Assembly: GCA_016789265.1 (NCBI GenBank)
Contig: JAEUQK010000030.1
Span: forward strand, 1 to 64,000
Origin: Blastocatellia bacterium
Lineage (GTDB): Bacteria; Acidobacteriota; Blastocatellia; Pyrinomonadales; Pyrinomonadaceae
Direction of reading: 5' to 3'
DNA length: 64,000 nucleotides
Shown here: positions 5,164 to 33,380 of the stretch, in pieces
Layout: every line of letters begins with the position of its first letter
Numbering within the stretch: position 1 is the stretch's first letter
Position numbers and translations under genes: made by a program
Notes under the pieces: generated by a model
What the model saw: the letters and a program-made list of their open reading frames with translations, nothing else
Databases searched by the model: none
What the model was told of the DNA's origin: nothing

Positions 5164-7788
5164 GTGGCAGAGTCGAGATCAGATAAATTAAGCAGTTTTG
5201 GATTGCGAGCCGCTATTCCCCGTTACGTGCGTTACGGGGCGATCGCCTTGCTCGGGCTTACGGTGATCGGCATTGGGATCAGCTACATAAACTCCCGTAC
5301 AAGCACCGATTTTCGGATGAAGGGCCGCCCCACTTCACTCTCAAAAGATGTGGTTGCGACGGTGGACGGTTACGAACGGACTGAGTATGACGAGGGGACA
5401 AAGCGATATTACATAAAGGCTGACCGAGCCGTCACGTACTCAGACAACCACCAGGAGCTGGAAAATGTTTTCCTCCAGGTATTCGCCCAGACAGCTGATG
5501 TTTCGGACCGGATCACAGCAGATAAGGCGATCTATATACCTGAAGAAGATAAGAACTTTACGGCCTATCTCGCGGGAAAAGTCAATGTAGATACTCGTGA
5601 CGGATTAAAAGTCATGACTGACCAGATCACGTACAGAAAGTCTGATGAGACCGCGACCGCAGAAGAATCGGTAGAATTCGTCCGTGAAAACGTATCCGGT
5701 AGCTCTTATGGCGCTGTTGTAAACGTACCAAAGAAATTGATCGAACTGCTTCGGGAAGTTGAGATCCGGCAGTATGAATCTGTAGAACTTTCAGGCGAAC
5801 CATCCGCCACCATTAACGCGGGGTATGCATCTTATGATCAGCTCAATGAGAAGGTGGAGACGAGGGGCGGTACCAAGATACATAGCGTCTCTAAGGTACC
5901 GTCCCGCATGATCGATCTCACAGCTGATCATTCGGTCGTGTCCCTATTTGTCCCTGAAGGGCAGCCGCGACAGCTCAAGTCGGCCGAAGTTTTTCAGAAC
6001 GTATCGATCCAATCGGTCGAAAACAGTGGCCCGCAATCAACAATTACTTCCGGCTACGCACTTTACGATAAGCCTTCTGATAGTTTTAACCTGCGTGATG
6101 ATGTCAACATCGTGACAACATCGTCCGACTCAATGCCCACGACCATTACGTCGTCTAGTGCATCCTACGGCCAATCGACAGGTCACATTGAGTTAGTGGG
6201 GTCTGCACAGATCACCCAGGGTGCAAATTTCGCACGTGGTGACAAGATCATCGCGGACTTGTTTCCAACAAAAAGATTAAAAACAACACACATTGTTGGG
6301 AGTGGTTACCTTCGGCAAATCGAAGCAGATCGAACGATCGAGATATCAGCAACCGAACTGAACGCCGCATTTGCCGATGGGCAGGCACTAACCGAGGCTA
6401 ATGCGGTCACTGAGGCCTCGACCGTATTGACACCGTCGAAACCCGAAGAGTATTCAAAAGTCACAATGGAGACTCCGCGTTCGATCAGCCTTAGATTCAA
6501 ACAAGGCGGCATACTTGAAAAGATGTTCACCGAGGGCCGGACGACGATTCAGCTTGACTCACCGAACAATGCACCTGATGCCGCCAACAAACGCGTAACC
6601 GCGGATACAGTACGGACATTTTTCTCATCAGATGGAAAGAATCTTTTGAAGGCTGAGGCGGTAGGATCAGCCGAACTTTTTGTTGATCCCCTGAAAGTTG
6701 CGGCTGAGAACTATAAGACCAAGATCACCGCTCCGCGATTCGATTGTGAATTTTTTCCGACGGGCAACAATGCAAAGAACTGTAGCGGTGGAAAGGGCAC
6801 ACGGACGGTCCGGACCCCAACTTTAGCGACTGTGTCTCGCGGCGAACAGGTGTTGACCGCTGAATCACTAAATGCGGCTTTTAGTGAAACGTCAAGGGAC
6901 ATAGAAAAGCTTGATGCTCTCGGAAATGCCAGGTTTTCTGAATTGGATCGAAATGGTTTAGCTGATCAAATGTCATTTATGCCTACTACAGGGATAGTAC
7001 AACTTCGCGGCGGAGAACCGGCCGTCTGGGATTCCAGGGCGCGAGCGAAGGCTCGTGAGATCGACTGGGACACGAAAAATGAAAGGTCTTCTTTGCGACG
7101 TAGTGTTAGTACGACATATTACAGCCAAAAGCAGGCCGGCGGAGCAACGCCTTTCTCGGATTCTAACAAGCCCGTATTCGTGACGTCAGACACGGCAGAG
7201 ATCGACCATCGTGCCCAAACAGCCACATATAGCGGTAATGCGCGAGGATGGCAGGAAAAGAGCTACGTCAGGGCGCGCCGTTTTTATATACAACAACCGC
7301 TTGGACAATTTGATGCAGAGGGGAACGTTCAGAGTCTTTTATTCGACGTAAAGCGGAAAGAAAACGGAATTGAAAAGACAGTACCCGTATCTGCATTGTC
7401 CGATTCGATGACCTATTACAGAGACACGCGTCTAATACGATATGTCGGGGGTGTGGATGTCCGTCAGGCTACTGATCGCATAACGGGCGGGAGGGCAGAC
7501 ATCTACTTAAATGAGAATAACGAACTTTCGCGTTCTGAATTTCGGGAGAGTGTTATCATCACTCAGCCGAAAAGAAGGGCTGATGCCGATTCTGCCTTAT
7601 ACAATGCGTCTGATGAGAGTGTGATCCTTCGCGGAAACCCGGCCAGAGTGGAGGACGCGGAAAATGGAACATCCCAAGCCGGTCAAATGACCATCTTTCT
7701 TCGCAGCAACCGGGTCGTGTCCGAAGGAAGATCCACACAAAACGCCAACGGCCGTACCCGTTCGATTTATAAGATAAAGGAAAATTAG
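5164..7788 (+). CDS. Giant LptC/LptA-like LPS transport bridge protein
   Basis: 874 residues, GTG start. A cytosolic N-terminus (1-25) is followed by one membrane segment (about 26-44) and a long periplasmic part rich in alternating beta strands. The first about 200 residues resemble LptC: single anchor, then strands carrying the YYIKADRAV and ITADKAIY patterns. The rest repeats OstA/LptA-like units with patterns such as [27 protein letters not shown] and [11 protein letters not shown]. coli LptC (~190 aa) and LptA (~185 aa) are separate; here one chain seems to cover both. It directly precedes lptB (13-base gap), which supports a role in moving LPS across the periplasm. Cofactor-free beta-jellyroll function is inferred from the family; the exact domain count needs a structure prediction. 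Confidence 0.85.
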
Positions 7789-7801
7789 TATCATCCTACC
7801 A

Positions 7802-8584
7802 ATGAAGAACGGGGCTTCGAACGGGTTGTTGAGTTCAGACGGCATACAAAAAAGAGAACCTGGCATTTCATTCTCCGCGAATGGTATCAGAAAGACATAC
7901 GCAAAACGTCGTGTCGTTGACGATGTTACGATCAATGTTGCGACGGGAGAGGTAGTCGGATTGCTAGGAGCAAACGGGGCAGGGAAGACAACTACCTTCT
8001 ACATGATGGTAGGTCTGGAACCTACTGAACACGGTTCGATCAGCATTGGCGAGGAGGAGGTCACGCGTCTGCCCATGTATCTCCGTGCTCGGCTTGGTGT
8101 TGGATATCTTCCGCAGGAGCCGTCGATATTCAGAAAGTTGACGGCAGAACAGAACATCTTGGCGGTGCTTGAGACACGGAGATCGACTCGATCGGAACGA
8201 ATGAACCGGCTGCAGGAACTGCTTGAAGAGTTTGGAGTTGAGCACGTACGACGTGTTCGCGGCGATTCGCTGTCAGGCGGCGAGCGCCGACGGGTCGAGA
8301 TAGCACGATGCCTTGCGACTGAACCCCGGTTTATTCTTCTCGACGAGCCATTTGCTGGAATAGACCCCCTGGCAATTGACGATATTCGTGAGATAATACT
8401 GCATCTTAAGCGAAACGGCATCGGAATATTGATCACCGACCACAATGTAAGGGAGACCCTTGGTATCACTGATAGGACCTACATATTGACGGAAGGTAAG
8501 ATCCTCAGAAGTGGCTTCCCCTCTGAGCTGGTAGAAGATCCAGAGGTCAGAAGATATTACCTTGGCGAACGATTCAGCCTCTGA
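7802..8584 (+). CDS. lptB: LPS export ABC transporter ATP-binding protein
   Basis: 260 residues. ATPase that powers extraction of LPS from the inner membrane with LptF/LptG. Walker [10 protein letters not shown] (about 56-64), Q-loop region LPQEPSIF, signature LSGGERRR (about 158-165) and Walker B with [13 protein letters not shown] are intact, and the Q-loop and GIDP wording is typical of LptB. The first about 24 residues are an extension absent from E. coli LptB. The order lptC/A-lptB-rpoN-hpf matches the well-known proteobacterial arrangement and strengthens the call. lptF/G are not in the window. Confidence 0.95.
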
Positions 8585-8678: not shown

Positions 8679-10259
8679 ATGTCGTCACTTAGATTAACCA
8701 CCTCTTTACAGCAGAAGATGGTCCTAACGCCTCAGTTGCGTCAAAGGATCGAAATGCTGCAAATGACATCGATGGAATTGCAGGATCTCATCGAGCAGGA
8801 GATGGTTGCAAATCCAATTCTGGAGGAAGTTCAATCCGGAGATGAGCTCAACGAGATCTCGGCGGATATCCTCGATCAAAACTCCAGCGGTACGGATGAT
8901 GGTTTTCTTAATGGCTACGAGAAAGGTGCCTCGGAATTCGAAGGAGCACAACCGGACCAGAAGTCGATCGTAGAAGATCTTGATTCGGGACAATCAACTG
9001 TAAGCGACTACGACACAGACAGTGGTTCCGATTCGGATCTTCCTGACAGCTCCGGAGTTGAAAATACCGACGCATTTGAAGAGATCGATTATGGACGTGA
9101 GTTTCAGGATTACTTAGACCCGGGATACCGTACCCAGGAGATCGAATATAAGGACGATGCACCGAGTTTTGAGCAGTTTCTTACGCATAAACCGTCGTTA
9201 AGCGACCATCTGGAATGGCAGCTTAATATGTTGGATGTTTCCGAAGCTGTTAGGGAGGCTGCAGTCGCGATAATTGGCGATCTCGACGAAGACGGAAGGT
9301 TGTCTGCGAGTATTGAGGATATCGCCGAGCTCGCCGGATGTTCATTGGAAGTGGTGGAGAAAGCAAGGCAAGCCGTTCTCCGAATGGATCCGATCGGGTG
9401 TGGGGCGTTTAACGTTCGGGAGTGTCTGTCAGTTCAGCTTGAGGTTGAGGACATGGCTAACAGCTTAGCTGCAAGGTTGGTGATGGACCATCTCGAGGAC
9501 CTTCAGCCGCATAGGCTCCAACATCTTTCGAAAGCAACTGGGGTGGAGATACACGAACTTAATGAAGAGATCAAGAAGATAAGAGCTCTGGATCCCTATC
9601 CGGGCAGGCGTTACTCGTCTGAAGACGCCATGTTCGTGGCTCCAGAGGTCTATATTGAAAAGATCGAGGAAGATTATGTTATCTATTTTGCAGATGACGG
9701 CAGCCCGCGACTTCGGATAAGCCCGACCTACCACCAGCTTCTCGATCAGTCCGACACTACCAAGGAAACCAAAGATTTTATAAAGGAAAAAGTGAGATCA
9801 GCGGTTGATCTTCTTCGAAACATCGAACATCGGCGACAGACTATTTATAGGGTTGTTGAATGTATCGTAGATCGTCAAAGGGAATTCCTGGATAAAGGTG
9901 TCGAGTACATTAAACCGATGATGTTGAAAGATGTTGCTGAAGATATTGGGATGCATCTATCAACGATATCACGGGTGGTAAATCGAAAATACGCACATAC
10001 GCCCCAGGGCGTTATCGAACTAAGACGATTTTTCAGCGAAGGGATGATGAACGAAGAGGGAGAAGAAGTCTCGACACGCATCCTCAAGTTGAAGATCAAG
10101 AAGATGATAGAAGAAGAAGATACGAAGAAACCCCTTACCGATGATCAGATCGCAAAGATACTGAGCAAGGAAGGTGTAAAGCTCTCACGGCGAACGGTGG
10201 CAAAGTACCGCGACCAATTGAACATCGCCGGATCTAGAGAGCGAAAGACAGTCATCTAA
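8679..10259 (+). CDS. rpoN: RNA polymerase sigma-54 factor
   Basis: 526 residues. Sigma-54 recognises -24/-12 promoters and needs AAA+ enhancer-binding activators. Region I is Gln/Leu rich (SLQQKMVLTPQL, about 9-20; ILEE near 48). An acidic, variable region II (about 55-155) follows, then the core-binding domain, the HTH (KDVAEDIGMHLSTISRVV, about 415) and the C-terminal RpoN box SRRTVAKYR (about 506-514) that reads the -24 element. All domains are intact. It sits between lptB and hpf as in proteobacteria. A possible target promoter is noted at 53262. Confidence 0.97.
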   Translation: MSSLRLTTSLQQKMVLTPQLRQRIEMLQMTSMELQDLIEQEMVANPILEEVQSGDELNEISADILDQNSSGTDDGFLNGYEKGASEFEGAQPDQKSIVEDLDSGQSTVSDYDTDSGSDSDLPDSSGVENTDAFEEIDYGREFQDYLDPGYRTQEIEYKDDAPSFEQFLTHKPSLSDHLEWQLNMLDVSEAVREAAVAIIGDLDEDGRLSASIEDIAELAGCSLEVVEKARQAVLRMDPIGCGAFNVRECLSVQLEVEDMANSLAARLVMDHLEDLQPHRLQHLSKATGVEIHELNEEIKKIRALDPYPGRRYSSEDAMFVAPEVYIEKIEEDYVIYFADDGSPRLRISPTYHQLLDQSDTTKETKDFIKEKVRSAVDLLRNIEHRRQTIYRVVECIVDRQREFLDKGVEYIKPMMLKDVAEDIGMHLSTISRVVNRKYAHTPQGVIELRRFFSEGMMNEEGEEVSTRILKLKIKKMIEEEDTKKPLTDDQIAKILSKEGVKLSRRTVAKYRDQLNIAGSRERKTVI

Positions 10260-10285
10260 GTAACTACGTGACAAGAGGGGACAAC

Positions 10286-10816
10286 ATGAAATTCGAATAT
10301 ACAGGACGTCACATCGAAGTAACTCCCGCGCTAAAGGCGCATGTCGAGGAGCAATTTAAAAAGGTTGAGCATATTTTCAACGGGAAACCGGCAAAAGCAC
10401 ATGTGATCATAGAGGTTGAAAGGGGACGACATCGCTCCGAGGTTATCCTGAACTGGCGAAAAGAAACAATAACGGCCACGACCACAAATTCGGATATGTA
10501 TCTGTCGCTTTCGCAAACGATCGCAAAACTTGAGAAACAAGCATTGAAGATAAAGAAAAAGGTGATCGACAAGGCGCATAAAGCAAAACGCTCTGCCGTT
10601 GTCGCTGAACGCCGTACAGAATCAAGGGGGGATGTTCGCCGCCCGCGGATCATACCGGCGCGAAAATATGCGGTAAAGCCTGTCGCGCCTGAAGAGGCAG
10701 TAATGCTGCTCGAACAAGATTCAAAAGATTTTCTTGTTTTCCGAAACGCTGAGAACCAGAAGATCGCCGTGATCTATAAACGATCGGACGGAAACTTTGG
10801 ACTCATCCAACCATAG
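10286..10816 (+). CDS. hpf: Ribosome hibernation promoting factor, long form
   Basis: About 176 residues. I place the start at ATG 10286, which has a strong ribosome binding site (AGAGGGG, 10274-10280); an in-frame GTG at 10268 lies upstream of that site and is unlikely. The N-terminal S30AE domain (about 1-100) binds the 30S decoding region. The C-terminal domain (about 125-176, ARKYAVKPVAPEEAVM...) is the dimerisation domain of long HPF, which makes 100S ribosome dimers in stationary phase. It sits directly between rpoN and hprK. Confidence 0.93.
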   Translation: MKFEYTGRHIEVTPALKAHVEEQFKKVEHIFNGKPAKAHVIIEVERGRHRSEVILNWRKETITATTTNSDMYLSLSQTIAKLEKQALKIKKKVIDKAHKAKRSAVVAERRTESRGDVRRPRIIPARKYAVKPVAPEEAVMLLEQDSKDFLVFRNAENQKIAVIYKRSDGNFGLIQP

Positions 10817-10818
10817 GA

Positions 10819-11790
10819 ATGATCTCAATCGACGAAGGTAATCGAACCCCGGCTGTTTCGGTCCATACTTTCTTAGAGATTGCGTTTGACCAGATGCCTA
10901 TCGAATGTTTGGTCGGATCGGATTCCCTCAAGAAGCATTCGCTCGATTCGCCTCGGGTTCAAAAACTCGGTCTTGCTCTTTCAGGGTTCACGCATCGAAT
11001 ACATCCGGGTAGGATCCAGATCTATGGCAACAGCGAAGCGTATTTTTTTTCAAATCTCTCCGCGGATGAAATATCGACAGCCATAGATCGCCTTGATGCC
11101 AAGAACATAAGCTGTATCCTTGTCACAGCAAGTAATAACCCACCGGAAAGGTTTCGCGAATTTGCTCGTAAAAATAAGATCCCGCTTCTGCGAACATCGA
11201 TCGCCAGTTCCGAGGCTATAAATGCGGTCGCCAGGATCCTTGGATTTGAGCTGGCCCCGCAGCAGACTGTCCACGGCGTGTTGATAGAAGTATTCGGTAT
11301 CGGAACTATCCTTATCGGCGAATCTGGTATTGGTAAATCAGAATGTGCACTTGACCTGATCGGTAGAGGGCACCGCTTGATATCGGACGACTCTGTTGTC
11401 CTAAGGCGCATTGGTGATCGACTGATCGGGGCCGCTCCGGATATCACGCGGGACCACCTGGAAATACGAGGGTTAGGAATAATAAATGCCCGAGAACTTT
11501 TCGGGGTTTCTGCATTAGGACGGGAGACCAATGTCGCTCTGTGTATTGAGTTTGTTGGCGATAGCGAGGAATCGCATTTCGATCGTCTCGGATTTGAATC
11601 GGGTTCCTTTTCTGCTCTGGGCATTGATATCCATAAATTCGTATTTCCAGTTCGGCCCGGGCGTAATTTGGCTACGCTGTCTGAAACAGCGGTCCGAGTG
11701 TTTGTTTCAAATAGAAAGGCGGGAGGAGCGGCTCATGAGCTTATTGCCCGGCATGATAAGGCGTTGAGGGACTTGAATGGCCAAGAATAG
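10819..11790 (+). CDS. hprK: HPr kinase/phosphorylase
   Basis: 323 residues. A bifunctional enzyme that phosphorylates and dephosphorylates the regulatory Ser of HPr. The N-terminal domain (1-130) is followed by the catalytic domain with HGVLIEVFG (His152), P-loop GESGIGKS (about 167-174), LISDDSV, and the HprK signature LEIRGLGIINARELFG (about 214-229). It starts two bases after hpf and overlaps rapZ by 14 bases. In E. coli ptsN sits at this place; finding hprK together with HPr and EIIA suggests a regulatory PTS output rather than sugar uptake. Confidence 0.95.
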   Translation: MISIDEGNRTPAVSVHTFLEIAFDQMPIECLVGSDSLKKHSLDSPRVQKLGLALSGFTHRIHPGRIQIYGNSEAYFFSNLSADEISTAIDRLDAKNISCILVTASNNPPERFREFARKNKIPLLRTSIASSEAINAVARILGFELAPQQTVHGVLIEVFGIGTILIGESGIGKSECALDLIGRGHRLISDDSVVLRRIGDRLIGAAPDITRDHLEIRGLGIINARELFGVSALGRETNVALCIEFVGDSEESHFDRLGFESGSFSALGIDIHKFVFPVRPGRNLATLSETAVRVFVSNRKAGGAAHELIARHDKALRDLNGQE

Positions 11791-12670
11791 GTCCAAAAAT
11801 GCTCCGCATCATTTCTTGATCATTACCGGGCTCAGCGGCTCCGGAATGAGTTCTGCGACCAAGGCATTCGAGGATCTTGGCTACTTTTGCGTCGACAACC
11901 TCCCTCTCACAATGCTTTCAACCTTTGCCCGTCTGCTGATCCCGAACGAAGAAGAACATCCGGCGATCGAAAAGGCTGCGTTGGTCATTAATATTCGGGA
12001 ACGGCATTTTTTGTCGCAATTTCAATCTGAGCTTGCGAAACTCGAACGGAAAGATCTCAAGCCCTATATCATCTTCTTCGAAGCAACTGACGAAATACTA
12101 CATAGGCGTTTTTCTGAAACGAGGCGCCCGCATCCTTCTGTCGGCGGCAAATCGTTGGACAGATCAATAAAAGCCGAGAGAAAGGAGATGCAGGCGCTGA
12201 GAAAGCTCGCTGACCTGATCATCGACACTTCGGAGCATACCGTGCACACTCTTCGGCGTTCGTTGATGGAGACCTTCCGTACATCTAAGGACGGCGCGCC
12301 GTTTCGAGTTCAGATCGTCAGTTATGGACACAAGTTCGGAAACCCCCGCGACCTGGATCTTTTGTTTGATGTAAGACACTTGCCAAATCCGTTTTTCGAA
12401 CCGAATCTACGAGAGTTGACCGGGGAAGATAAACGAATCGTAAAATTTCTCGACAAATACCCGGAAGTAGCCGAGACAATATCAAGGTTCAGTGATCTGC
12501 TCTTGTTTTTGTTGCCATACTACAGGCGAGAAGGGAAGTCATATGTTACTGTCGGGATCGGCTGCACCGGAGGACGACACCGTTCTGTGATGGTAGCGAA
12601 TAGCCTGAAACGTGTTCTTACCCGTCACAAATACGATGTTTCGGTAAACCACAGAGATATGCAAAAATGA
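11777..12670 (+). CDS. rapZ: RapZ/YvcJ family nucleotide-binding protein with altered P-loop
   Basis: 297 residues. RapZ family proteins are small-RNA or RNase adaptors (in E. coli RapZ directs RNase E to GlmZ), often encoded beside PTS genes. The family wording is clear: FEDLGYFCVDNLPL (about 31-44), FDVRHLPNPF (about 197-206), TGEDKRIV and the GCTGGRHRSV motif (about 262-271) of the C-terminal domain. The Walker A is GLSGSGMSS (18-26): the Lys needed for nucleotide phosphate binding is Met24, encoded ATG. The rest is well conserved, so the protein looks functional in its C-terminal role. It overlaps hprK upstream and EIIA downstream (ATGA). Confidence 0.93.
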   Translation: MAKNRSKNAPHHFLIITGLSGSGMSSATKAFEDLGYFCVDNLPLTMLSTFARLLIPNEEEHPAIEKAALVINIRERHFLSQFQSELAKLERKDLKPYIIFFEATDEILHRRFSETRRPHPSVGGKSLDRSIKAERKEMQALRKLADLIIDTSEHTVHTLRRSLMETFRTSKDGAPFRVQIVSYGHKFGNPRDLDLLFDVRHLPNPFFEPNLRELTGEDKRIVKFLDKYPEVAETISRFSDLLLFLLPYYRREGKSYVTVGIGCTGGRHRSVMVANSLKRVLTRHKYDVSVNHRDMQK

Positions 12671-13101
12671 TGGTTATGGAAAGAATCGGTGGAGTGATCG
12701 TTTCACACGGCCAACTCGCAAATGAACTATTGGCGGCGGCGGAAACGGTAGTTGGTGACATTGGCCACATTATTGCGGTCTCGATCGGTTGGCACGATGA
12801 TGTGGAAATGGCAAGAGACGAAGTCGAGCGGGCTATCAGATCAGTTTCCAAAGGAACAGGGGTCATCATCTTGACCGACATGTTCGGCGGAACTCCGACC
12901 AATATTGCCGCGATGTTCCTCTCACCGGGTGACGTCGAGATCGTCACCGGTGTCAACCTCCCGATGGTGATCAAACTCGCGTCGAATACAAAGGATCTGG
13001 ATCTTATTGATCTCGCAAAAGAGATCGAGGATCAAGGGAAGACCTCCATATATAGAACGAGCGCACTTTTGGAGCCACAAAAACTAAAGAAGGATGCTTG
13101 A
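12667..13101 (+). CDS. PTS EIIA component, mannose family
   Basis: 144 residues, one EIIA-Man domain. The phospho-accepting His is in VSHGQLA (His14) and the DMFGGTPTN loop is at about 75-83. In a full PTS it passes phosphate from HPr to an EIIB. No EIIB, EIIC or EIID lies nearby, so here it is probably a regulatory acceptor, as proposed for similar hprK-rapZ-EIIA-HPr clusters. It overlaps rapZ by 4 bases (ATGA) and HPr by 8 bases, so translation is likely coupled. Confidence 0.92.
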   Translation: MMVMERIGGVIVSHGQLANELLAAAETVVGDIGHIIAVSIGWHDDVEMARDEVERAIRSVSKGTGVIILTDMFGGTPTNIAAMFLSPGDVEIVTGVNLPMVIKLASNTKDLDLIDLAKEIEDQGKTSIYRTSALLEPQKLKKDA

Positions 13102-25330: not shown

Positions 25331-26218
25331 TTAACTGACGATCATCGTTCCCGTTCCCTCGTCTGTAAATACTTCAGCCAGGATGCCGTTTCTAGCGGTG
25401 CCGCTGATAACATGGGCAGAGTTTACGCCCCTTTCCAGGATGGATATTAGATTTTCCAGCTTTGGGATCATACCGCCGGTGGCATTTCCCGATTCGATCA
25501 TCGCCCTGGCATCCGCTTTACTCAATCTATCGATCTTGCTTGTTTCGTCTTTTGGATCGAGATAGATACCATTGACATCCGAAAGGAGTACTAATTTTTC
25601 AGCTCCCAGCATGACGGCTATCTCAGATGCAATGGTGTCGGCGTTTATGTTGTATATCTTTCCTTCGTCATCGGCCCCGAGCGAGGAGATAACCGGCATA
25701 TAGTCATTCTCAAGCAACAGAATTATCAAACGTGCGTCGACTTCCACTACGTCACCGACATGGCCATAATCAACGGTCTCCGTTTCTCCCGTTTGTTTAT
25801 TGAGTACGTCCTTTGGCGGCCGGCGTTGGGCTTTGATAACACCTCCGTCAAGACCGGATAAACCGACAGCATGAATACCTCGGTGACGAAGGGCCGAAAG
25901 GATTTCTGTATTGATCTTTCCTCGAAAGATCATCTTTGCCAATTCCAGCGTGTCGTCATCCGTAACACGACGACCTTCGATCACCGTCTGAACAACGCCG
26001 AGTTTGCCTGCCAATTCAGTTAGTTGCTTTCCGCCCCCATGGATAACGCAAACACGGATGCCTACTTGATGCAGCAAGGCCAGTTCTTCGGCAAGAGAGA
26101 TCAACACTGCTTTGTCCTCAGTCACTTTGCCAGAAAACTTGATGACAAAGGTCTTTCCCTTGAAACGCTGAATATATGGCAGGGCCTCACGAAGCAGGTC
26201 CAATGTCTCAATGTTCAT
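25331..26218 (-). CDS. argB: N-acetylglutamate kinase (N-acylglutamate kinase)
   Basis: 295 residues, amino acid kinase family, second step of arginine synthesis. Motifs: KFSGK (about 24-28), HGGGKQLT (about 60-67), GLSGLDG..., INADTIASEIA near 190-200 and the K/R-rich active site (LSDVNGIY, SGNATGGMIPKL). It is the last gene of the arginine operon and overlaps argF' by 4 bases. Given the T92 residue of the carbamoyltransferase, the acyl group may be succinyl rather than acetyl; this kinase cannot be assigned from motifs alone. Confidence 0.93.
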   Translation of the reverse strand: MNIETLDLLREALPYIQRFKGKTFVIKFSGKVTEDKAVLISLAEELALLHQVGIRVCVIHGGGKQLTELAGKLGVVQTVIEGRRVTDDDTLELAKMIFRGKINTEILSALRHRGIHAVGLSGLDGGVIKAQRRPPKDVLNKQTGETETVDYGHVGDVVEVDARLIILLLENDYMPVISSLGADDEGKIYNINADTIASEIAVMLGAEKLVLLSDVNGIYLDPKDETSKIDRLSKADARAMIESGNATGGMIPKLENLISILERGVNSAHVISGTARNGILAEVFTDEGTGTMIVS

Positions 26219-27216
26219 TTGATCAACTCCGCCATTATTGCTTTTTGGATATGTAGGCGATTCTCAGCTTCGTCGATCACCACTGAATTCGATCCATCGA
26301 TCACGCCGTCTGAGACGATCACATTCCGTCGAACCGGGAGGCAATGCATGAAGATCCCGTTGTTGGTCCGAGTCATCTTTGCCTCGTCAACGATCCAATC
26401 TTTTCGGTAAGCCTCACGCTCACGAATGTCGCCGTTCGAGTCACCATAAAAGGTTTTGCTTCCCCAGCTCTTCGCATAAACCACTTCGACTCCGTCAAAG
26501 CCTGCGTTCACATCGTAGGTGTATTCGACGCTTCCCCCCGCTGCGGCTGCGTGGCCTTCGATCTCGGCCAGCAGGTCATTGTCCAGTTCATACCCTTTCG
26601 GATGGGCGATCCTAAGATCGTGCCCGAATTGAGCTGCCGCAAGCGCAAAGCTGTTTGGTACGGCCATTGGAAGTGGTTTTGGATGCCAGGCCCACGTCAA
26701 CAATACCTTCTTTTTCTTCTCGCCTAGGTTCTCTTTGATCGTCATCATATCTGCCATTGACTGACAGGGATGGTGCATAGCGGATTCGAGATTGATGATC
26801 GGGACACTGGCGTACTTCGCAAACGAACGTAGGATCGGATCGGTGCGTTCTGTCTCCCAATCCTGAAGGTCGGCAAACGTTCTTACTCCTATGGCGCACA
26901 CATATCGCTCAAGCACTCGAACAAATTCTTTAAGATGTTCTGTTTTCCCGCCGTCCATCACGACACCTTCGCGATGTTCGAGAGTCCACGAAGTGCCGCC
27001 GGGTTCAAGGATCACGGGATTACCGCCAAGTTCGTAAATACCGACTTGCATCGATGCTCTCGTACGTAAGCTTGGATTGAAGAATACCAATGCGACCGAT
27101 TTTCCTTCCAATGGACGCAAAGCAGAGCTTCCGGTCTTAAAAGCTCGAGCCGATTGGATAAGGCTTTCAAGCTCCTTCCGGTTGAAATCAGAGGTTTTCA
27201 AGAAATCCCCGGGCAT
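26215..27216 (-). CDS. argF': N-acylornithine carbamoyltransferase (acetyl or succinyl)
   Basis: 333 residues. Transcarbamylase with the SOTCase/AOTCase wording FFNPSLRTRASM (about 45-56), carbamoyl-phosphate site HHPCQSMAD (about 147-155), HCLPVRRNV (about 294-302) and the ENRLHIQKAIMAEL end (about 318-331) that distinguishes N-acylornithine enzymes from ordinary ornithine transcarbamylase. The residue equivalent to Glu92 of the Xanthomonas enzyme (acetyl-specific; Pro in the Bacteroides succinyl enzyme) is Thr92. From the published mutant work as I recall it, small or non-acidic residues there favour succinylornithine. Its ATG overlaps the upstream PLP gene by one base (TAATG). Confidence 0.9.
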   Translation of the reverse strand: MPGDFLKTSDFNRKELESLIQSARAFKTGSSALRPLEGKSVALVFFNPSLRTRASMQVGIYELGGNPVILEPGGTSWTLEHREGVVMDGGKTEHLKEFVRVLERYVCAIGVRTFADLQDWETERTDPILRSFAKYASVPIINLESAMHHPCQSMADMMTIKENLGEKKKKVLLTWAWHPKPLPMAVPNSFALAAAQFGHDLRIAHPKGYELDNDLLAEIEGHAAAAGGSVEYTYDVNAGFDGVEVVYAKSWGSKTFYGDSNGDIREREAYRKDWIVDEAKMTRTNNGIFMHCLPVRRNVIVSDGVIDGSNSVVIDEAENRLHIQKAIMAELIK

Positions 27217-28427
27217 TACTTAACTATCTCCAAGGTTCTAAGGCAGCGCTCGATCCGTTCATAAGTGTGTGCAATGTCGTTATCCAATCCTATGGAAAAC
27301 CGAACTAGGCCCTCGCTTAGACCCATTTCAATTCTTTCTTCCAAAGGGATCTCTGACGATGTACTGTGGCCGGGCATGCTGAATAGCGTTTTGAAATATC
27401 CGAGACTAACGGCAAGGTAACCAACCTTTTCCTGCTGCATCAAACGCATCAATTCGTTTGCGGTCTTCGTATTTCCGACATCGAGAGCAAGCATTCCGCC
27501 GTACCCGTATCCTGGATTCATTATCTCGGTTAACAACCCATGCTGAGGATGACTAGAAAGCCCCGGATAGTGCACTGTTAGACCGATATTCTGAAACTGT
27601 TCCGCGAGGTACAATGCATTCGAACTATGCTGCCGCATGCGTAAATGCAGGGAATGCAGGTTCTTTAGAATGCTGGCCGCGCGCATGCTGTCGAGTACGC
27701 CGCCCAGTAACATCGATGTACCTGAATTAATATCCGTTAACGAATGGATAAACTCATCGCTCGCACAGATGCACCCCGCCACACAGTCGCTCGTACCGTT
27801 AATGAACTTGGTCATACTGTGAACCGCCACATCCGCGCCGAGTCGAATCGGAGAAACCATCATCGGACTAAACGTGTTGTCCACAACCAATCTAATGCCT
27901 TTGCTTTTTGCGATCTCTGAAAGCTGTGGCAGATCGGCGATCTCCAGTAGCGGATTGCTCGTGGTCTCGCAATAGATCACCTTGGTTTGTTCGCTAATGG
28001 CAGAAGTGACTTCTTCGAGATCTTGGATATCTACGAATTTCGTTGTGATCCCGAGTCGAGGTAAAAGATTCTTGAACAGCGCGTAGGTTCCGCCGTAAAT
28101 AGTGTGCGCCGCAACGATCTCATCACCAGCATCGCAGATCTGCAGTATGGCCGAACTTATCGCCGACATTCCCGATGCGCAAACTTGCGCGGATTCGCTG
28201 TCCTCCATTCGCGCGAGAGCTTGGGCAAGATGTTTGTTCGTTGGGTTCCAATGGCGCGAATAAAGAAAGCAGCCTTCGATCTCGTGTTCGAACAACTCCT
28301 CCATCGTCTCCGGTGTAAGGAACGTGAAGGTGGACGAATCTGTGACCGATGGATTGACATCTCCGTATTCTCCAAAGACGAGAAAGTCCTGTACTCTACT
28401 GCCTGGATCAAAAGGCCGTTTGGTCAT
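27216..28427 (-). CDS. Cys/Met-metabolism PLP enzyme inside the arginine operon
   Basis: 403 residues, transsulfuration family fold. Active-site lysine in SMTKFINGTSD (Lys207), YSRHWNPTN (about 56-64), TIYGGTY (about 109-115) and ETTSNPLLEI (about 154-163) fit gamma-lyase/gamma-synthase members such as methionine gamma-lyase, cystathionine gamma-synthase or O-acylhomoserine sulfhydrylase. The N-terminus (residues 1-30) lacks the usual polar tail of gamma-synthases. It lies between argD and argF' with overlapping stops and starts (4 and 1 bases), so co-regulation with arginine genes is likely. Its substrate is unknown; the context suggests it could act on an arginine-pathway intermediate or couple sulfur metabolism. 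Confidence 0.82.
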   Translation of the reverse strand: MTKRPFDPGSRVQDFLVFGEYGDVNPSVTDSSTFTFLTPETMEELFEHEIEGCFLYSRHWNPTNKHLAQALARMEDSESAQVCASGMSAISSAILQICDAGDEIVAAHTIYGGTYALFKNLLPRLGITTKFVDIQDLEEVTSAISEQTKVIYCETTSNPLLEIADLPQLSEIAKSKGIRLVVDNTFSPMMVSPIRLGADVAVHSMTKFINGTSDCVAGCICASDEFIHSLTDINSGTSMLLGGVLDSMRAASILKNLHSLHLRMRQHSSNALYLAEQFQNIGLTVHYPGLSSHPQHGLLTEIMNPGYGYGGMLALDVGNTKTANELMRLMQQEKVGYLAVSLGYFKTLFSMPGHSTSSEIPLEERIEMGLSEGLVRFSIGLDNDIAHTYERIERCLRTLEIVK

Positions 28428-29599
28428 GACAACTCCTTGATGAGAATGTCTAAATCATCGAGTGACGTATTTAGGGGCGGAAGCAGTCTGAGCACCTTTG
28501 GGTCACTAGATGTTCCCGTAATGATCCCTGACTCAAGAAGCCGGTTGAAGGTATCGCCTGCATTGCCGGTACATTCGATGCCTAACAAACATCCCTTACC
28601 GCGAATCGACCGAACGCCTTTAAGTTCAGCCGCTCTGAGTTTTTGTTCAATAGCTTTCGCATTACCGAGCATACCGTCCTTCTCGATCGCCTCTAAAGTC
28701 GCGATCACGGCGGCCATTGCGATCATTCCGCCGCCAAACGTAGTCCCAAGATCATTCTCTTTTATTGAAGAAGATACGGTGTTATTGACCAAACATGCCC
28801 CGACAGGAATGCCGCTGCCGAGTGATTTGGCGAGGGTGACGATGTCGGGCACAACGCCTGCGGCCAATTCGCTCCCCGCAAAGAACCAATTACCGGTTCT
28901 TCCGACACCCGTTTGCACCTCGTCAAATATCAGCAACGTTCCATTTTGATCGCAAAGTTCACGTAACCGTTGAAAATACGATGGTTCAGCTTCGCGGACA
29001 CCGGCCATTGATTGGATCGGCTCAAGTATCACTCCGGCAGTTTCCATATCGATCACCGATAACAGAGAGTCGATATCGCCAAATTCAGCTTCAACATGAA
29101 AGGGAACATTGGGCTCCCCAAGTTTTCGATATTTGCCAAGAAAAGTAGCAGAGATCGAATCAGCCGTTCTGCCGTGAAATCCGCCAGAAAATGAAATGAT
29201 CTTTTGCCTCCCTGTCACCATTCGCGCCATTCGCATGGCATTTTCGTTTGCCTCGGTTCCTGAATTACAAAAGAACACCTTAGACAGGGAAGCGGGTGCC
29301 AGTGACGCTACCTTTTCAGCAGCCCTACCTCGAATATCGGAATAAACGAGATTTGAGTAAAAAATGACCTTTTCGGCTTGTTCTTTTATCGCCGCAACGA
29401 CGTGCGGATGCGAGTGGCCCGTGGCACAGACCGCATGTCCTCCATAGAGATCAAGGTATTTTGCACCGCTGCTGGAGTACACCCACGAACCGTTCCCGCG
29501 TTCGACCGCGATGTCCATTTTCTTGTAGGTTGAGACCTGAAACTTATCTTCTATCGATCTGATCGCTTCAAACGTATCGACAGCCCCTGCAAACTTCAT
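28424..29599 (-). CDS. argD: N-acylornithine aminotransferase
   Basis: 391 residues, fold type I aminotransferase. PLP lysine in LAKSLGSGIPVGA (about 277-289), FCNSGTEANE (about 109-118), FDEVQTGVGRTG (about 245-256), and DLYGGHAVCATGHSHP (about 50-65) match acetylornithine aminotransferases (ArgD). It overlaps argC and the PLP gene by 4 bases each. It converts N-acylglutamate semialdehyde to N-acylornithine. Confidence 0.93.
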   Translation of the reverse strand: MKFAGAVDTFEAIRSIEDKFQVSTYKKMDIAVERGNGSWVYSSSGAKYLDLYGGHAVCATGHSHPHVVAAIKEQAEKVIFYSNLVYSDIRGRAAEKVASLAPASLSKVFFCNSGTEANENAMRMARMVTGRQKIISFSGGFHGRTADSISATFLGKYRKLGEPNVPFHVEAEFGDIDSLLSVIDMETAGVILEPIQSMAGVREAEPSYFQRLRELCDQNGTLLIFDEVQTGVGRTGNWFFAGSELAAGVVPDIVTLAKSLGSGIPVGACLVNNTVSSSIKENDLGTTFGGGMIAMAAVIATLEAIEKDGMLGNAKAIEQKLRAAELKGVRSIRGKGCLLGIECTGNAGDTFNRLLESGIITGTSSDPKVLRLLPPLNTSLDDLDILIKELS

Positions 29600-30624
29600 G
29601 GATTACCTCCCGGAAAGATCAGACCGGTCCGTTCATCGAGCCCGAACATCAAGTTCATGTTCTGAACCGCCTGGCCAGCGGCACCTTTTACCAGGTTATC
29701 AATGGCGGAGAAAACTACGATATTCTCGCCATTTGTATGTACGAAAATATCGCAAAAATTTGTGTTCTTGACCCAGTTGATGTCGGGTGAACCATCCGCA
29801 AACCTGACAAAATACGATCCGGAATAGAAATTTCGAAACAGACCCAATGCATCTTCATTCGTTAGTTTTGCAGAGGTCTCAGCGTAGCACGAGGCAAAGA
29901 TACCCCGGGAAACAGGCAAGCTGTGCGTCATAAAGACGAGTTGGTTATCAAAATCGCCAAGTGCCTTGAGATGCTGTACGATCTCAGGCACATGCTGGTG
30001 CTTGAACGGCTTATAAGCGTAAAACGAGTTCATCCGCTGCGGATGGTGAGTGTTTGCAGCCGGTTTTGCACCTGAACCCGATGAACCTGTCTTTGCGTCA
30101 ACTATCACCTTACCAGTCAAGAGTCCGCTTTTTGCCAAAGGCGCTAACGCCAGCGCGGTCGCCGTCGCAAAACAGCCAGGATTGGCTATGTATTGCGCGG
30201 AAATGATCGCGTCTCGGTTTGTTTCCGTCAAGCCATAAACAAATTTCGATTGGAACTCACCAGCATGTTTGATCTCATAGTACGCTTCGAAGGTCTCAGC
30301 GTCATCTATTCTGAAATCGCCCGAGAGATCGATCGCCTTTACCGATGGAGGAAGATTAGGGATCAAGTCGAGAGCCTGTCCATGTGGCAACCCGAAGAAA
30401 ACAACATCTACATAACTCAATGATCCGAGATCTTCCGGAGCCTTTTCAAACATTAGTTCGGTGAGGGAATTGAGATTACGGTGAACGGAAGATACCGGTT
30501 TTCCCGCATGTTCGTTGGCCGTGACAAGTACGATCTCTGCATTAGGGTGGAATAGTAGAATTCGAAGCAGCTCGCTGCCTCCGTAACCCGATCCGCCGAA
30601 TATTGCGATCCGGATCTTACTCAT
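29596..30624 (-). CDS. argC: N-acetyl-gamma-glutamyl-phosphate reductase
   Basis: 342 residues, NADP-dependent semialdehyde dehydrogenase family. Nucleotide-binding GGSGYGGSELLRILL (about 10-24), catalytic NPGCFATATALAL (about 148-160, Cys151), and HTHHPQRMN-like substrate loop (NTHHPQRMN, about 190-198). Part of the overlapping arginine operon (4-base overlaps on both sides). Confidence 0.94.
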   Translation of the reverse strand: MSKIRIAIFGGSGYGGSELLRILLFHPNAEIVLVTANEHAGKPVSSVHRNLNSLTELMFEKAPEDLGSLSYVDVVFFGLPHGQALDLIPNLPPSVKAIDLSGDFRIDDAETFEAYYEIKHAGEFQSKFVYGLTETNRDAIISAQYIANPGCFATATALALAPLAKSGLLTGKVIVDAKTGSSGSGAKPAANTHHPQRMNSFYAYKPFKHQHVPEIVQHLKALGDFDNQLVFMTHSLPVSRGIFASCYAETSAKLTNEDALGLFRNFYSGSYFVRFADGSPDINWVKNTNFCDIFVHTNGENIVVFSAIDNLVKGAAGQAVQNMNLMFGLDERTGLIFPGGNP

Positions 30625-32174: not shown

Positions 32175-33380
32175 TTAAAAAAGACTGACCTTGATACGGA
32201 GAAATTTCTTTGGATTTTGTCGGAAGTCGTAAATGAGCTTTGTGGTTTCGCTTGAGAATTGATTAACGTTAGACGCGGTTTGATTGATGTTATTATACAG
32301 TGTTTCGTCAGTAACAAGTCGGCCGATCGTACCTTTACCGGCTCGCGCATCGCCCAGGATCAGATCTAACTTATCAGCAGTAGAATTGAACTTAGCCAGC
32401 GTATCCCTGGCATTCTCGTAGAGTTTCTCATCTTTAAGAAACTTTCCAGCACTACCGGTTCCACCGGCGAGATCGGTAGTTATCGACTTTAGATCGTCGA
32501 TGACGCCGTTGAATTTAGCTGCCGAAGCACGCAGATCAATGATCGCGGCTCGTGTTTCATTATATAAAGCGTCGTCGGTCACAAATTTACCGGCCGTGCC
32601 TTTTCCGGCTTTGATGTCGTTCGAGATCGCTTCGAGCTGAGAGACCGTATTGTTCAGACTTTCATAAAGCTTCGGGTCGTTGACCAGCTTGCCGGCTGTT
32701 CCGTCGCCCTTGTTTATCTTATCGATTGTCGTTTGCAGTTTTACGACGGTCAATTTAGTTTCGGCAACTGCTGCATCTAGATTCCGGTAGAGAGACTCAT
32801 CATTGACGATACTTCCAAGTGTCCCCTCGCCCTGATTCGCTTTATTTAATATCTCATTCGCAGGGATAGCTAGTTTGTTTATCTGCTGAAGCAGATCGTT
32901 TCCGGTCTTGGTGAGCTGATTGACAGATATAGCCTGGGTTGAATCCAGGACGTGTCCTTCCTCTACTGGGTCACCTTTCGATGTTCCCGGGGTAATGTTG
33001 ATTATCTTGTCGTTTGCAAGGACAGAGATAGCAATGAGTTGTGCAGTCGAGTCCGATCTGATCCGTTCAGTTATCGGCCTGTCATTCAGTTGGCCGTCGA
33101 CCGCCATTACGGCCTCTATCTTCGCATCCTCCGGAGAATCCGGCGGCAACAGAGAAACTGTTTCGACTTTTCCAATACGGACACCGGCGATCTGAACTTC
33201 CGCACCTTCACGAAGACCATCAGCCGCAGCGAATCGAGCCTTCAACCTTAACTTCTTTTCAAATGGATTAAAATCGCCCGTCGAATTCAGGATAAGGAAT
33301 GCAAGAACTGCTAAACCAACCAAAACGAAGATCCCAACGCGAAGCTGGCTAAATGTTAATGTAGGTTTCGTTTGTACCAT
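32175..33380 (-). CDS. mlaD: MlaD-family substrate-binding protein with C-terminal repeats
   Basis: 401 residues. A membrane anchor (about 13-31) and an MCE domain (about 43-130, GLREGAEVQIAGVRIGKVETV) place it as MlaD, the periplasmic lipid-binding part of the Mla phospholipid transporter. Residues about 160-380 are long helices broken by five copies of G-x-G-T-x-G-x-x-x-x-D-x-x-L-Y (near 184, 225, 259, 306 and 348). It follows mlaF by 13 bases and is the last gene of the mlaEFD operon. Confidence 0.88.
   Translation of the reverse strand: MVQTKPTLTFSQLRVGIFVLVGLAVLAFLILNSTGDFNPFEKKLRLKARFAAADGLREGAEVQIAGVRIGKVETVSLLPPDSPEDAKIEAVMAVDGQLNDRPITERIRSDSTAQLIAISVLANDKIINITPGTSKGDPVEEGHVLDSTQAISVNQLTKTGNDLLQQINKLAIPANEILNKANQGEGTLGSIVNDESLYRNLDAAVAETKLTVVKLQTTIDKINKGDGTAGKLVNDPKLYESLNNTVSQLEAISNDIKAGKGTAGKFVTDDALYNETRAAIIDLRASAAKFNGVIDDLKSITTDLAGGTGSAGKFLKDEKLYENARDTLAKFNSTADKLDLILGDARAGKGTIGRLVTDETLYNNINQTASNVNQFSSETTKLIYDFRQNPKKFLRIKVSLF

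What the first reader, a model, noticed from the sequence alone, without database searches (positions are those of the whole stretch)
5164..7788. One giant protein combining LptC-like and LptA-like parts
Seen: 874 residues, one membrane anchor, and many OstA-like strand repeats directly before lptB. Known: LptC and LptA are usually separate proteins of about 190 residues. Inference: a covalent LPS bridge several times longer than normal may span the periplasm without LptA polymerisation.
Basis: partly seen in the sequence, partly recalled or inferred. Interest (0 to 1): 0.55.

Follow-up and report, generated by a model that had tools for sequence, protein, structure and literature searches.

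The report
Fused, extra-long LptC–LptA lipid bridge
This bacterium seems to carry its outer-membrane lipid (LPS) across the space between its two membranes on one very long protein instead of a chain of separate ones, and the same fusion, plus a fusion of the two pump subunits, recurs across much of its phylum.

Summary
ORF 5164-7788 (874 aa) is one membrane-anchored protein: LptC at the N-terminus, LptA at the C-terminus, and about 460 further residues of the same fold between them, directly before lptB. AlphaFold2 predicts one helix, then β-strands from 63 to 854 (pLDDT 89.8); segments match solved LptC, LptA, LptH or LptD-N structures. I count about 45 β-rungs, against 8 per LptA. This genome (98% complete) has no other detectable LptA or LptC; it has LptB, LptD, LptE and LpxC. 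A covalent bridge without LptA polymerisation is the best reading; transport was not tested.

It is not an oddity. In 70 sampled genomes of the phylum no complete short LptA or LptC frame was detected; 37 of 41 with an LptC hit have LptA/LptD-N in the same frame. LptF and LptG are also fused (760 aa here; 68 of 70 genomes), although a 2022 survey reported them lacking in Acidobacteria. Among 76 class proteins, every bridge insertion of 12 aa or more is 31-39 aa, about one β-hairpin, so the bridge seems to change length in steps. New variant of a known kind.

The parts
5164..7788 (+). LptC-LptA fusion ('LptCA'), 874 aa: N-terminal anchor and continuous beta-taco
5200..5301 (+). single membrane-anchor helix, residues 13-46
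   Evidence: hydropathy; predicted helix
5263..5769 (+). LptC domain, residues 34-202
   Evidence: PF06835 and TIGR04409; model 62-211 on LptC of LptB2FGC 6mit_C, Z 17.1
5770..7155 (+). extra beta-taco between LptC and LptA, residues 203-664
   Evidence: pLDDT about 87-98 per 10-residue block; 366-664 folded alone: pLDDT 93.6, pTM 0.89, LptH Z 12.8 rmsd 1.6 over 124
6745..6783 (+). conserved cysteines C528 and C540 flanking one predicted beta-turn
   Evidence: C528 in 62 of 64, C540 in 46 of 64 aligned proteins; strands 517-530 and 537-542. A disulphide is inference
6922..7173 (+). most conserved stretch, residues 587-670, role unknown
   Evidence: mean top-residue share 0.70, 22 positions at 90% or more
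7156..7758 (+). LptA domain, residues 665-865
   Evidence: PF03968, TIGR03002; model 664-801 on LptA 2r1a_H Z 13.3 rmsd 1.9 over 124
7802..8584 (+). lptB
   Evidence: TIGR04406 352.9 bits, cut-off 240
8679..10259 (+). rpoN, same order as in E. coli
   Evidence: sigma-54 Pfam domains; E. coli order
10268..10816 (+). hpf
   Evidence: S30AE domains
10819..13101 (+). HPr kinase, rapZ and EIIA-man genes
   Evidence: Pfam

Best explanation
The ORF is the whole periplasmic part of the LPS bridge between the pump and LptD, made as one chain. Its N-terminal helix anchors it beside the LptB2FG pump, and its LptC part receives LPS from the pump. A continuous beta-taco groove about 45 rungs long carries the lipid part across the periplasm. 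The C-terminal LptA part hands it to the N-terminal beta-taco of LptD. Because the links between LptC and LptA units are covalent, LptA need not polymerise, and bridge length is fixed by the gene. The pump's two membrane subunits, LptF and LptG, are also one chain, so the usual seven proteins become five: LptB, LptFG, LptCA, LptD, LptE. Shown here: domains, fold prediction, gene neighbourhood, gene content, distribution. Inferred: LPS as cargo, groove continuity, docking to LptFG and LptD, transport.
For: Family matches over curated cut-offs for both LptC and LptA in one ORF. All-beta model from 63 to 854 apart from two short helical turns. Segments match LptC, LptA, LptH or LptD-N structures. 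No second LptA or LptC detected in the genome. LptD (851 aa), LptE, LpxC and a KdtA-type gene present. Fused LptF-LptG present: LptF half 245.4 bits (cut-off 230), LptG half 258.3 (cut-off 240), hydrophobic segments compatible with 6+6 membrane helices. The fusion sits where E. coli has lptC-lptA: before lptB-rpoN-hpf, with rapZ further on. A match of the protein in 157 of 162 genomes of the class.
Against: No experiment. A test for alternating hydrophobic residues was positive overall (14 of 2000 shuffles as high) but negative for 664-860 (932 of 1000). The whole-chain pTM is 0.69, so overall straightness is uncertain. The estimated 21 nm, plus the LptF and LptD parts, exceeds a 21 nm periplasm, so the bridge must bend or tilt, or the periplasm must be wider. 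A second, highly diverged LptA below detection cannot be excluded. TIGR03002 clears its cut-off only narrowly. In 4 of 41 LptC-positive genomes of the phylum no LptA/LptD-N hit was detected in the LptC frame, and 13 of 70 genomes gave no hit in any of three searches.
Confidence: 0.85

Rival explanations
1. The fusion protein is an LPS bridge, but still one unit of a larger assembly: several LptCA chains, or an undetected LptA-like protein, contribute, so covalent linkage does not replace polymerisation.
For: A soluble beta-taco protein can be too diverged for profile searches: 13 of 70 sampled genomes of the phylum gave no hit in any of three searches (counted by hand).
Against: Own-genome searches found no other LptA or LptC. 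About 45 rungs is already about 5.6 LptA units, while a published estimate gives 16 nm for a bridge with a single LptA.
Confidence: 0.1
2. The machine carries a lipid other than classical LPS, for example another glycolipid.
For: Lpt systems without LPS exist: the Treponema pallidum paper describes an Lpt apparatus for an uncharacterised substrate other than LPS (passage).
Against: LpxC and a KdtA-type gene, both of lipid A/Kdo synthesis, are present in this genome, as are LptD and LptE.
Confidence: 0.07
3. The middle region is a structural spacer or docking platform and lipid does not run along its whole length.
For: Residues 587-670 are unusually conserved, and segment 206-324 is poorly conserved and varies most in length.
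Against: The middle folds as the same beta-taco, close to LptH and LptA at 1.6 A; in an extended chain lipid could hardly skip about 25 rungs.
Confidence: 0.05
4. Assembly or frameshift artefact joining two genes.
For: None found.
Against: Homologues read as one frame in many independent genomes of the class (one listed match holds a TGA) and of other classes.
Confidence: 0.005

Closest known systems
E. coli LptC, LptA and the transenvelope Lpt bridge
   Same: Same fold, same gene order before lptB-rpoN-hpf, same domain families over curated cut-offs.
   Different: E. coli has two proteins of 191 and 185 aa (from coordinates), with an LptA multimer of unknown length; here one 874-aa chain with about 460 extra residues and no free LptA detected.
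LptB2FG with separate LptF and LptG
   Same: Each half matches its own NCBIfam equivalog over cut-off.
   Different: One 760-aa chain with a linker at about 366-413.
LptD N-terminal beta-taco
   Same: Same fold; 665-852 superposes on chain 4q35_A with Z 16.1.
   Different: No outer-membrane barrel; the LptD of this genome is a separate 851-aa protein.
Bridge-like lipid transfer proteins (TamB, YhdP, VPS13; recalled)
   Same: Long single-chain beta groove anchored at one membrane, built of repeats (recalled).
   Different: Different families; no TamB or AsmA Pfam family among hits of this protein. Works alike at most, not a member.

Membership tests
LptC | NCBIfam TIGR04409 over its cut-off | tested here: met
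   90.2 bits, cut-off 38
LptC | single N-terminal membrane helix followed by a beta-jellyroll like solved LptC | tested here: met
   helix 13-46; 81-214 on 3my2 Z 14.8 rmsd 1.8 over 121; 62-211 on 6mit_C Z 17.1 rmsd 3.1 over 145
LptC | binding to LptB2FG | not testable with these tools
   lptB adjacency only
LptA | NCBIfam TIGR03002 over its cut-off | tested here: met
   73.2 bits, cut-off 71.7, narrow
LptA | LptA fold | tested here: met
   664-801 on 2r1a_H Z 13.3 rmsd 1.9 over 124
LptA | separate soluble periplasmic protein of about 185 aa | tested here: not met
   part of an anchored 874-aa chain; so it is an LptA domain, not an LptA protein
LptF and LptG (gene outside the window) | TIGR04407 and TIGR04408 over cut-off | tested here: met
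   245.4 (230) at 7-365; 258.3 (240) at 414-757
LptF and LptG (gene outside the window) | two separate polypeptides | tested here: not met
   one ORF, L140:2335-4617
TamB/AsmA-like bridge proteins | TamB or AsmA Pfam domain | tested here: not met
   no such family among hits up to E 1

The most novel reading that the evidence does not exclude
Across the Acidobacteriota, LPS export runs on a condensed Lpt machine of five chains (LptB, LptFG, LptCA, LptD, LptE). In it a genetically encoded, single-chain bridge acts as a ruler: its length evolves by adding or removing single two-rung beta-hairpins (about 35 residues, about 1 nm each) and tracks the periplasm width of each lineage.
Probability: 0.35. 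Interest if true: 0.78.

Novelty: new variant of a known kind. Interest (0 to 1): 0.6.

Why it matters
How many LptA units a bridge contains, and what sets its length, is unsettled in E. coli: a 2017 paper calls the LptA multimer 'of unknown length' (passage). A single-chain bridge has a fixed, readable length, so bridge length against periplasm width becomes directly testable across natural variants. It also corrects a census: a 2022 survey reports lptF and lptG as apparently lacking in Acidobacteria (section read), whereas here 69 of 70 sampled genomes have matches and 68 have both in one frame. A fused LptFG also gives an LPS pump whose two halves are fixed 1:1, useful for structural work.

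Tried and rejected
Artefact of assembly or frameshift: rejected, conserved as one frame in many genomes. Separate LptA or LptC elsewhere in the genome: searched, none detected. Apparent short LptA/LptC frames in the phylum (246, 353 and 449 aa in G206, G177, G197): all run off contig ends, so rejected as free LptA/LptC. G214, where LptF and LptG seemed separate: both frames run off contig ends, consistent with a fusion cut by assembly. Hydrophobic alternation as a test of a continuous groove: mixed result, not relied on. Literature searches for a fused LptC-LptA or LptF-LptG listed no paper whose title or shown abstract reports either; only PMC papers under open licences were searched, and most listed papers were not opened (passages of PMC8871954, PMC5575297, PMC8407342, PMC5491611, PMC8787282 and PMC11130926 were). 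PMC8787282 (passage) mentions an 'LptF/LptG' permease in an acidobacterium without saying it is fused. Whether such fusions occur in other phyla did not complete.

Full report
OBSERVATION. The ORF at 5164-7788 (+) is real: 874 aa, GTG start. It carries Pfam LptC at 34-202 (75.5 bits, cut-off 21) and four stretches of Pfam LptA/LptD_N (90.9 bits, cut-off 20.4); NCBIfam LptC scores 90.2 (cut-off 38) and LptA 73.2 (cut-off 71.7). Hydropathy shows one membrane region, near the N-terminus. The next gene is lptB, then rpoN, hpf, an HPr kinase gene, rapZ and an EIIA-man gene. E. coli K-12 has lptC (191 aa), lptA (185 aa), lptB, rpoN, hpf, ptsN, rapZ. The fusion thus stands where lptC and lptA stand in E. 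coli.

FOLD. AlphaFold2 with 64 sequences (window plus 63 loci of the search for related loci) gave mean pLDDT 89.8 and pTM 0.69: one helix at 13-46, then only strands from 63 to 854 apart from two three-residue helical turns. Second-look structural alignment: 62-211 on LptC of LptB2FGC (6mit_C, Z 17.1, rmsd 3.1, 145 aligned); 81-214 on LptC 3my2 (Z 14.8, 1.8 Å, 121); 209-366 and 246-366 on LptA (Z 9.2, rmsd 4.0, 112; Z 9.6, rmsd 3.1, 108); 664-801 on LptA 2r1a_H (Z 13.3, 1.9 Å, 124); 731-870 on LptA 2r19_A (Z 12.8, 2.5 Å, 127). That list gave no single-domain match for 367-663, so I folded 366-664 alone (60 sequences, four of the 64 left out): pLDDT 93.6, pTM 0.89. Its best matches are LptH 4uu4 (Z 12.8, 1.6 Å, 124) and LptA 2r1a_C (Z 12.3, 1.6 Å, 123), corresponding to 513-654, and LptD N-terminal domains over about 371-582 (Z 11-12, rmsd 3.5-4.4). 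So the whole periplasmic part is predicted as β-taco.

LENGTH. The model lists 54 strands; counting nine pairs of short neighbours as one gives 45 rungs (my count by hand). The stretch 664-801 that superposes on one LptA holds 8 of them, so 45 rungs is about 5.6 LptA units. At 4.8 Å per rung (recalled) this is about 21 nm if straight. A 2017 paper (passages) gives 21 nm for the E. coli periplasm and about 16 nm for the whole bridge with a single LptA. Adding the LptF and LptD parts, the bridge here would exceed 21 nm; it must bend or tilt, or the periplasm is wider. This is an estimate.

GENOME CONTEXT. In the window's own assembly (42 contigs, completeness 98.07) all matches of PF03968 and PF06835 at E 0.001 lie in this ORF. 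LptD is an 851-aa ORF elsewhere (its own LptD_N match, 18.8 bits, falls under the cut-off of 20.4). LptE, LpxC and a KdtA-type glycosyltransferase gene are present.

A SECOND FUSION. Both LptF_LptG matches of the genome lie in one 760-aa ORF: LptF 7-365 and LptG 414-757, each over its equivalog cut-off. Hydrophobic segments fit six helices before and six after the linker. The seven classical chains are thus five here.

DISTRIBUTION. In the class, 157 of 162 genomes have a match of the window protein. In 70 genomes drawn from the phylum: LptF/LptG matches in 69, both domains in one frame of 744-987 aa in 68; G214's two halves run off contig ends; G189 has no match. LptC matches in 41 of 70; in 37 of these 41 an LptA/LptD_N match lies in the same frame; the other four are G163, G171, G191 and G197, where G197's frame is cut by a contig end and G163 and G171 have single frames of 635 and 614 residues. 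The only frames under 500 aa (246, 353, 449) run off contig ends. With alignment A1, 52 of 70 match. By my hand count over, 13 of 70 have no hit in any of the three, so nothing is known of their bridge. Some hits in these lists are LptD N-termini. Frame lengths in these tables are stop to stop. In 16 LptCA loci fetched from genomes of other families (chosen because they had hits, not at random), ORFs are 548-850 aa with an N-terminal hydrophobic segment, and an LptB-like ORF lies next to it in 15 of 16. Nearest named relatives are mostly Pyrinomonadaceae and other Acidobacteriota.

PRIOR LITERATURE. PMC8871954 (section 3.4 read whole) states that lptF and lptG are 'apparently lacking in Acidobacteria'. 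The present counts contradict this; that the fusion caused the miss is my guess. Nine searches of the open-licence PMC library listed no report of either fusion in titles and shown abstracts.

QUANTISED LENGTH. In the 64-protein alignment the LptC part (61-205) is 140-152 residues in 63 of 64 (101 in one whose ORF starts late) and the LptA part (665-854) 185-193 in all. Segment 325-665 is 336-344 in 60 and 376-377 in 4. Segment 205-325 falls in groups: 9-24 (23 proteins), 82 (1), 111-134 (21), 153-169 (19). In a realignment of 76 distinct class proteins, insertions of 12 aa or more relative to the window protein inside 61-854 occur at five sites and all measure 31-39 aa: 22 proteins after 264 (31-33), one each after 377 (37), 408 (37) and 455 (39), two after 582 (34). 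Three small ones of 10-11 aa also occur. Large deletions in 205-325 are 106-115 in one piece in some, or split by the aligner into 75-78 plus 18-29 in most; smaller gaps of 10-34 also occur there and fit no clear step. Two rungs of the model take 2 x (854-63)/45, about 35 residues. The natural reading is gain and loss of single two-rung hairpins, which keeps the chain's direction. I did no test against chance or phylogeny; the 22 at site 264 may be one event, and aligned positions of indels are uncertain.

MECHANISM. Shown: architecture, predicted fold, gene content, neighbourhood, distribution. Inferred: LPS moves from LptFG to the LptC part, along the groove, to LptD, with no LptA-LptA joints.

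VERDICT.

Noticed in passing
G000:C14, L140:2335-4617 (-), outside the window: LptF and LptG are one 760-aa ORF; both domains lie in one frame in 68 of 70 sampled genomes of the phylum, against a published statement that both genes are lacking in Acidobacteria.
   Followed up: yes
LptCA family, sites 264, 377, 408, 455, 582 of the window protein: Large insertions in the bridge are all 31-39 aa, about one two-rung hairpin.
   Followed up: partly
window 6922-7173 (residues 587-670): Most conserved stretch of the whole protein, more so than the LptC and LptA ends; no known reason.
   Followed up: no
window 6745-6783: Two conserved cysteines, C528 (62 of 64) and C540 (46 of 64), on neighbouring predicted strands: possible disulphide in the bridge.
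   Followed up: partly
G176:C163 and G176:C134: One genome of the phylum carries two fused LptFG frames.
   Followed up: no
G172:C48:17344-18399: An additional single LptF/LptG-type frame of 362 aa beside the fused one.
   Followed up: no
window 32175-33380 (-): An MlaD-domain protein (PF02470), a possible second lipid transporter component in the same window.
   Followed up: no
window 26215-30624 (-): Cluster with carbamoyltransferase, class-III aminotransferase and semialdehyde dehydrogenase, plus a Cys/Met-type PLP enzyme between them; looks like arginine synthesis with an unusual member.
   Followed up: no
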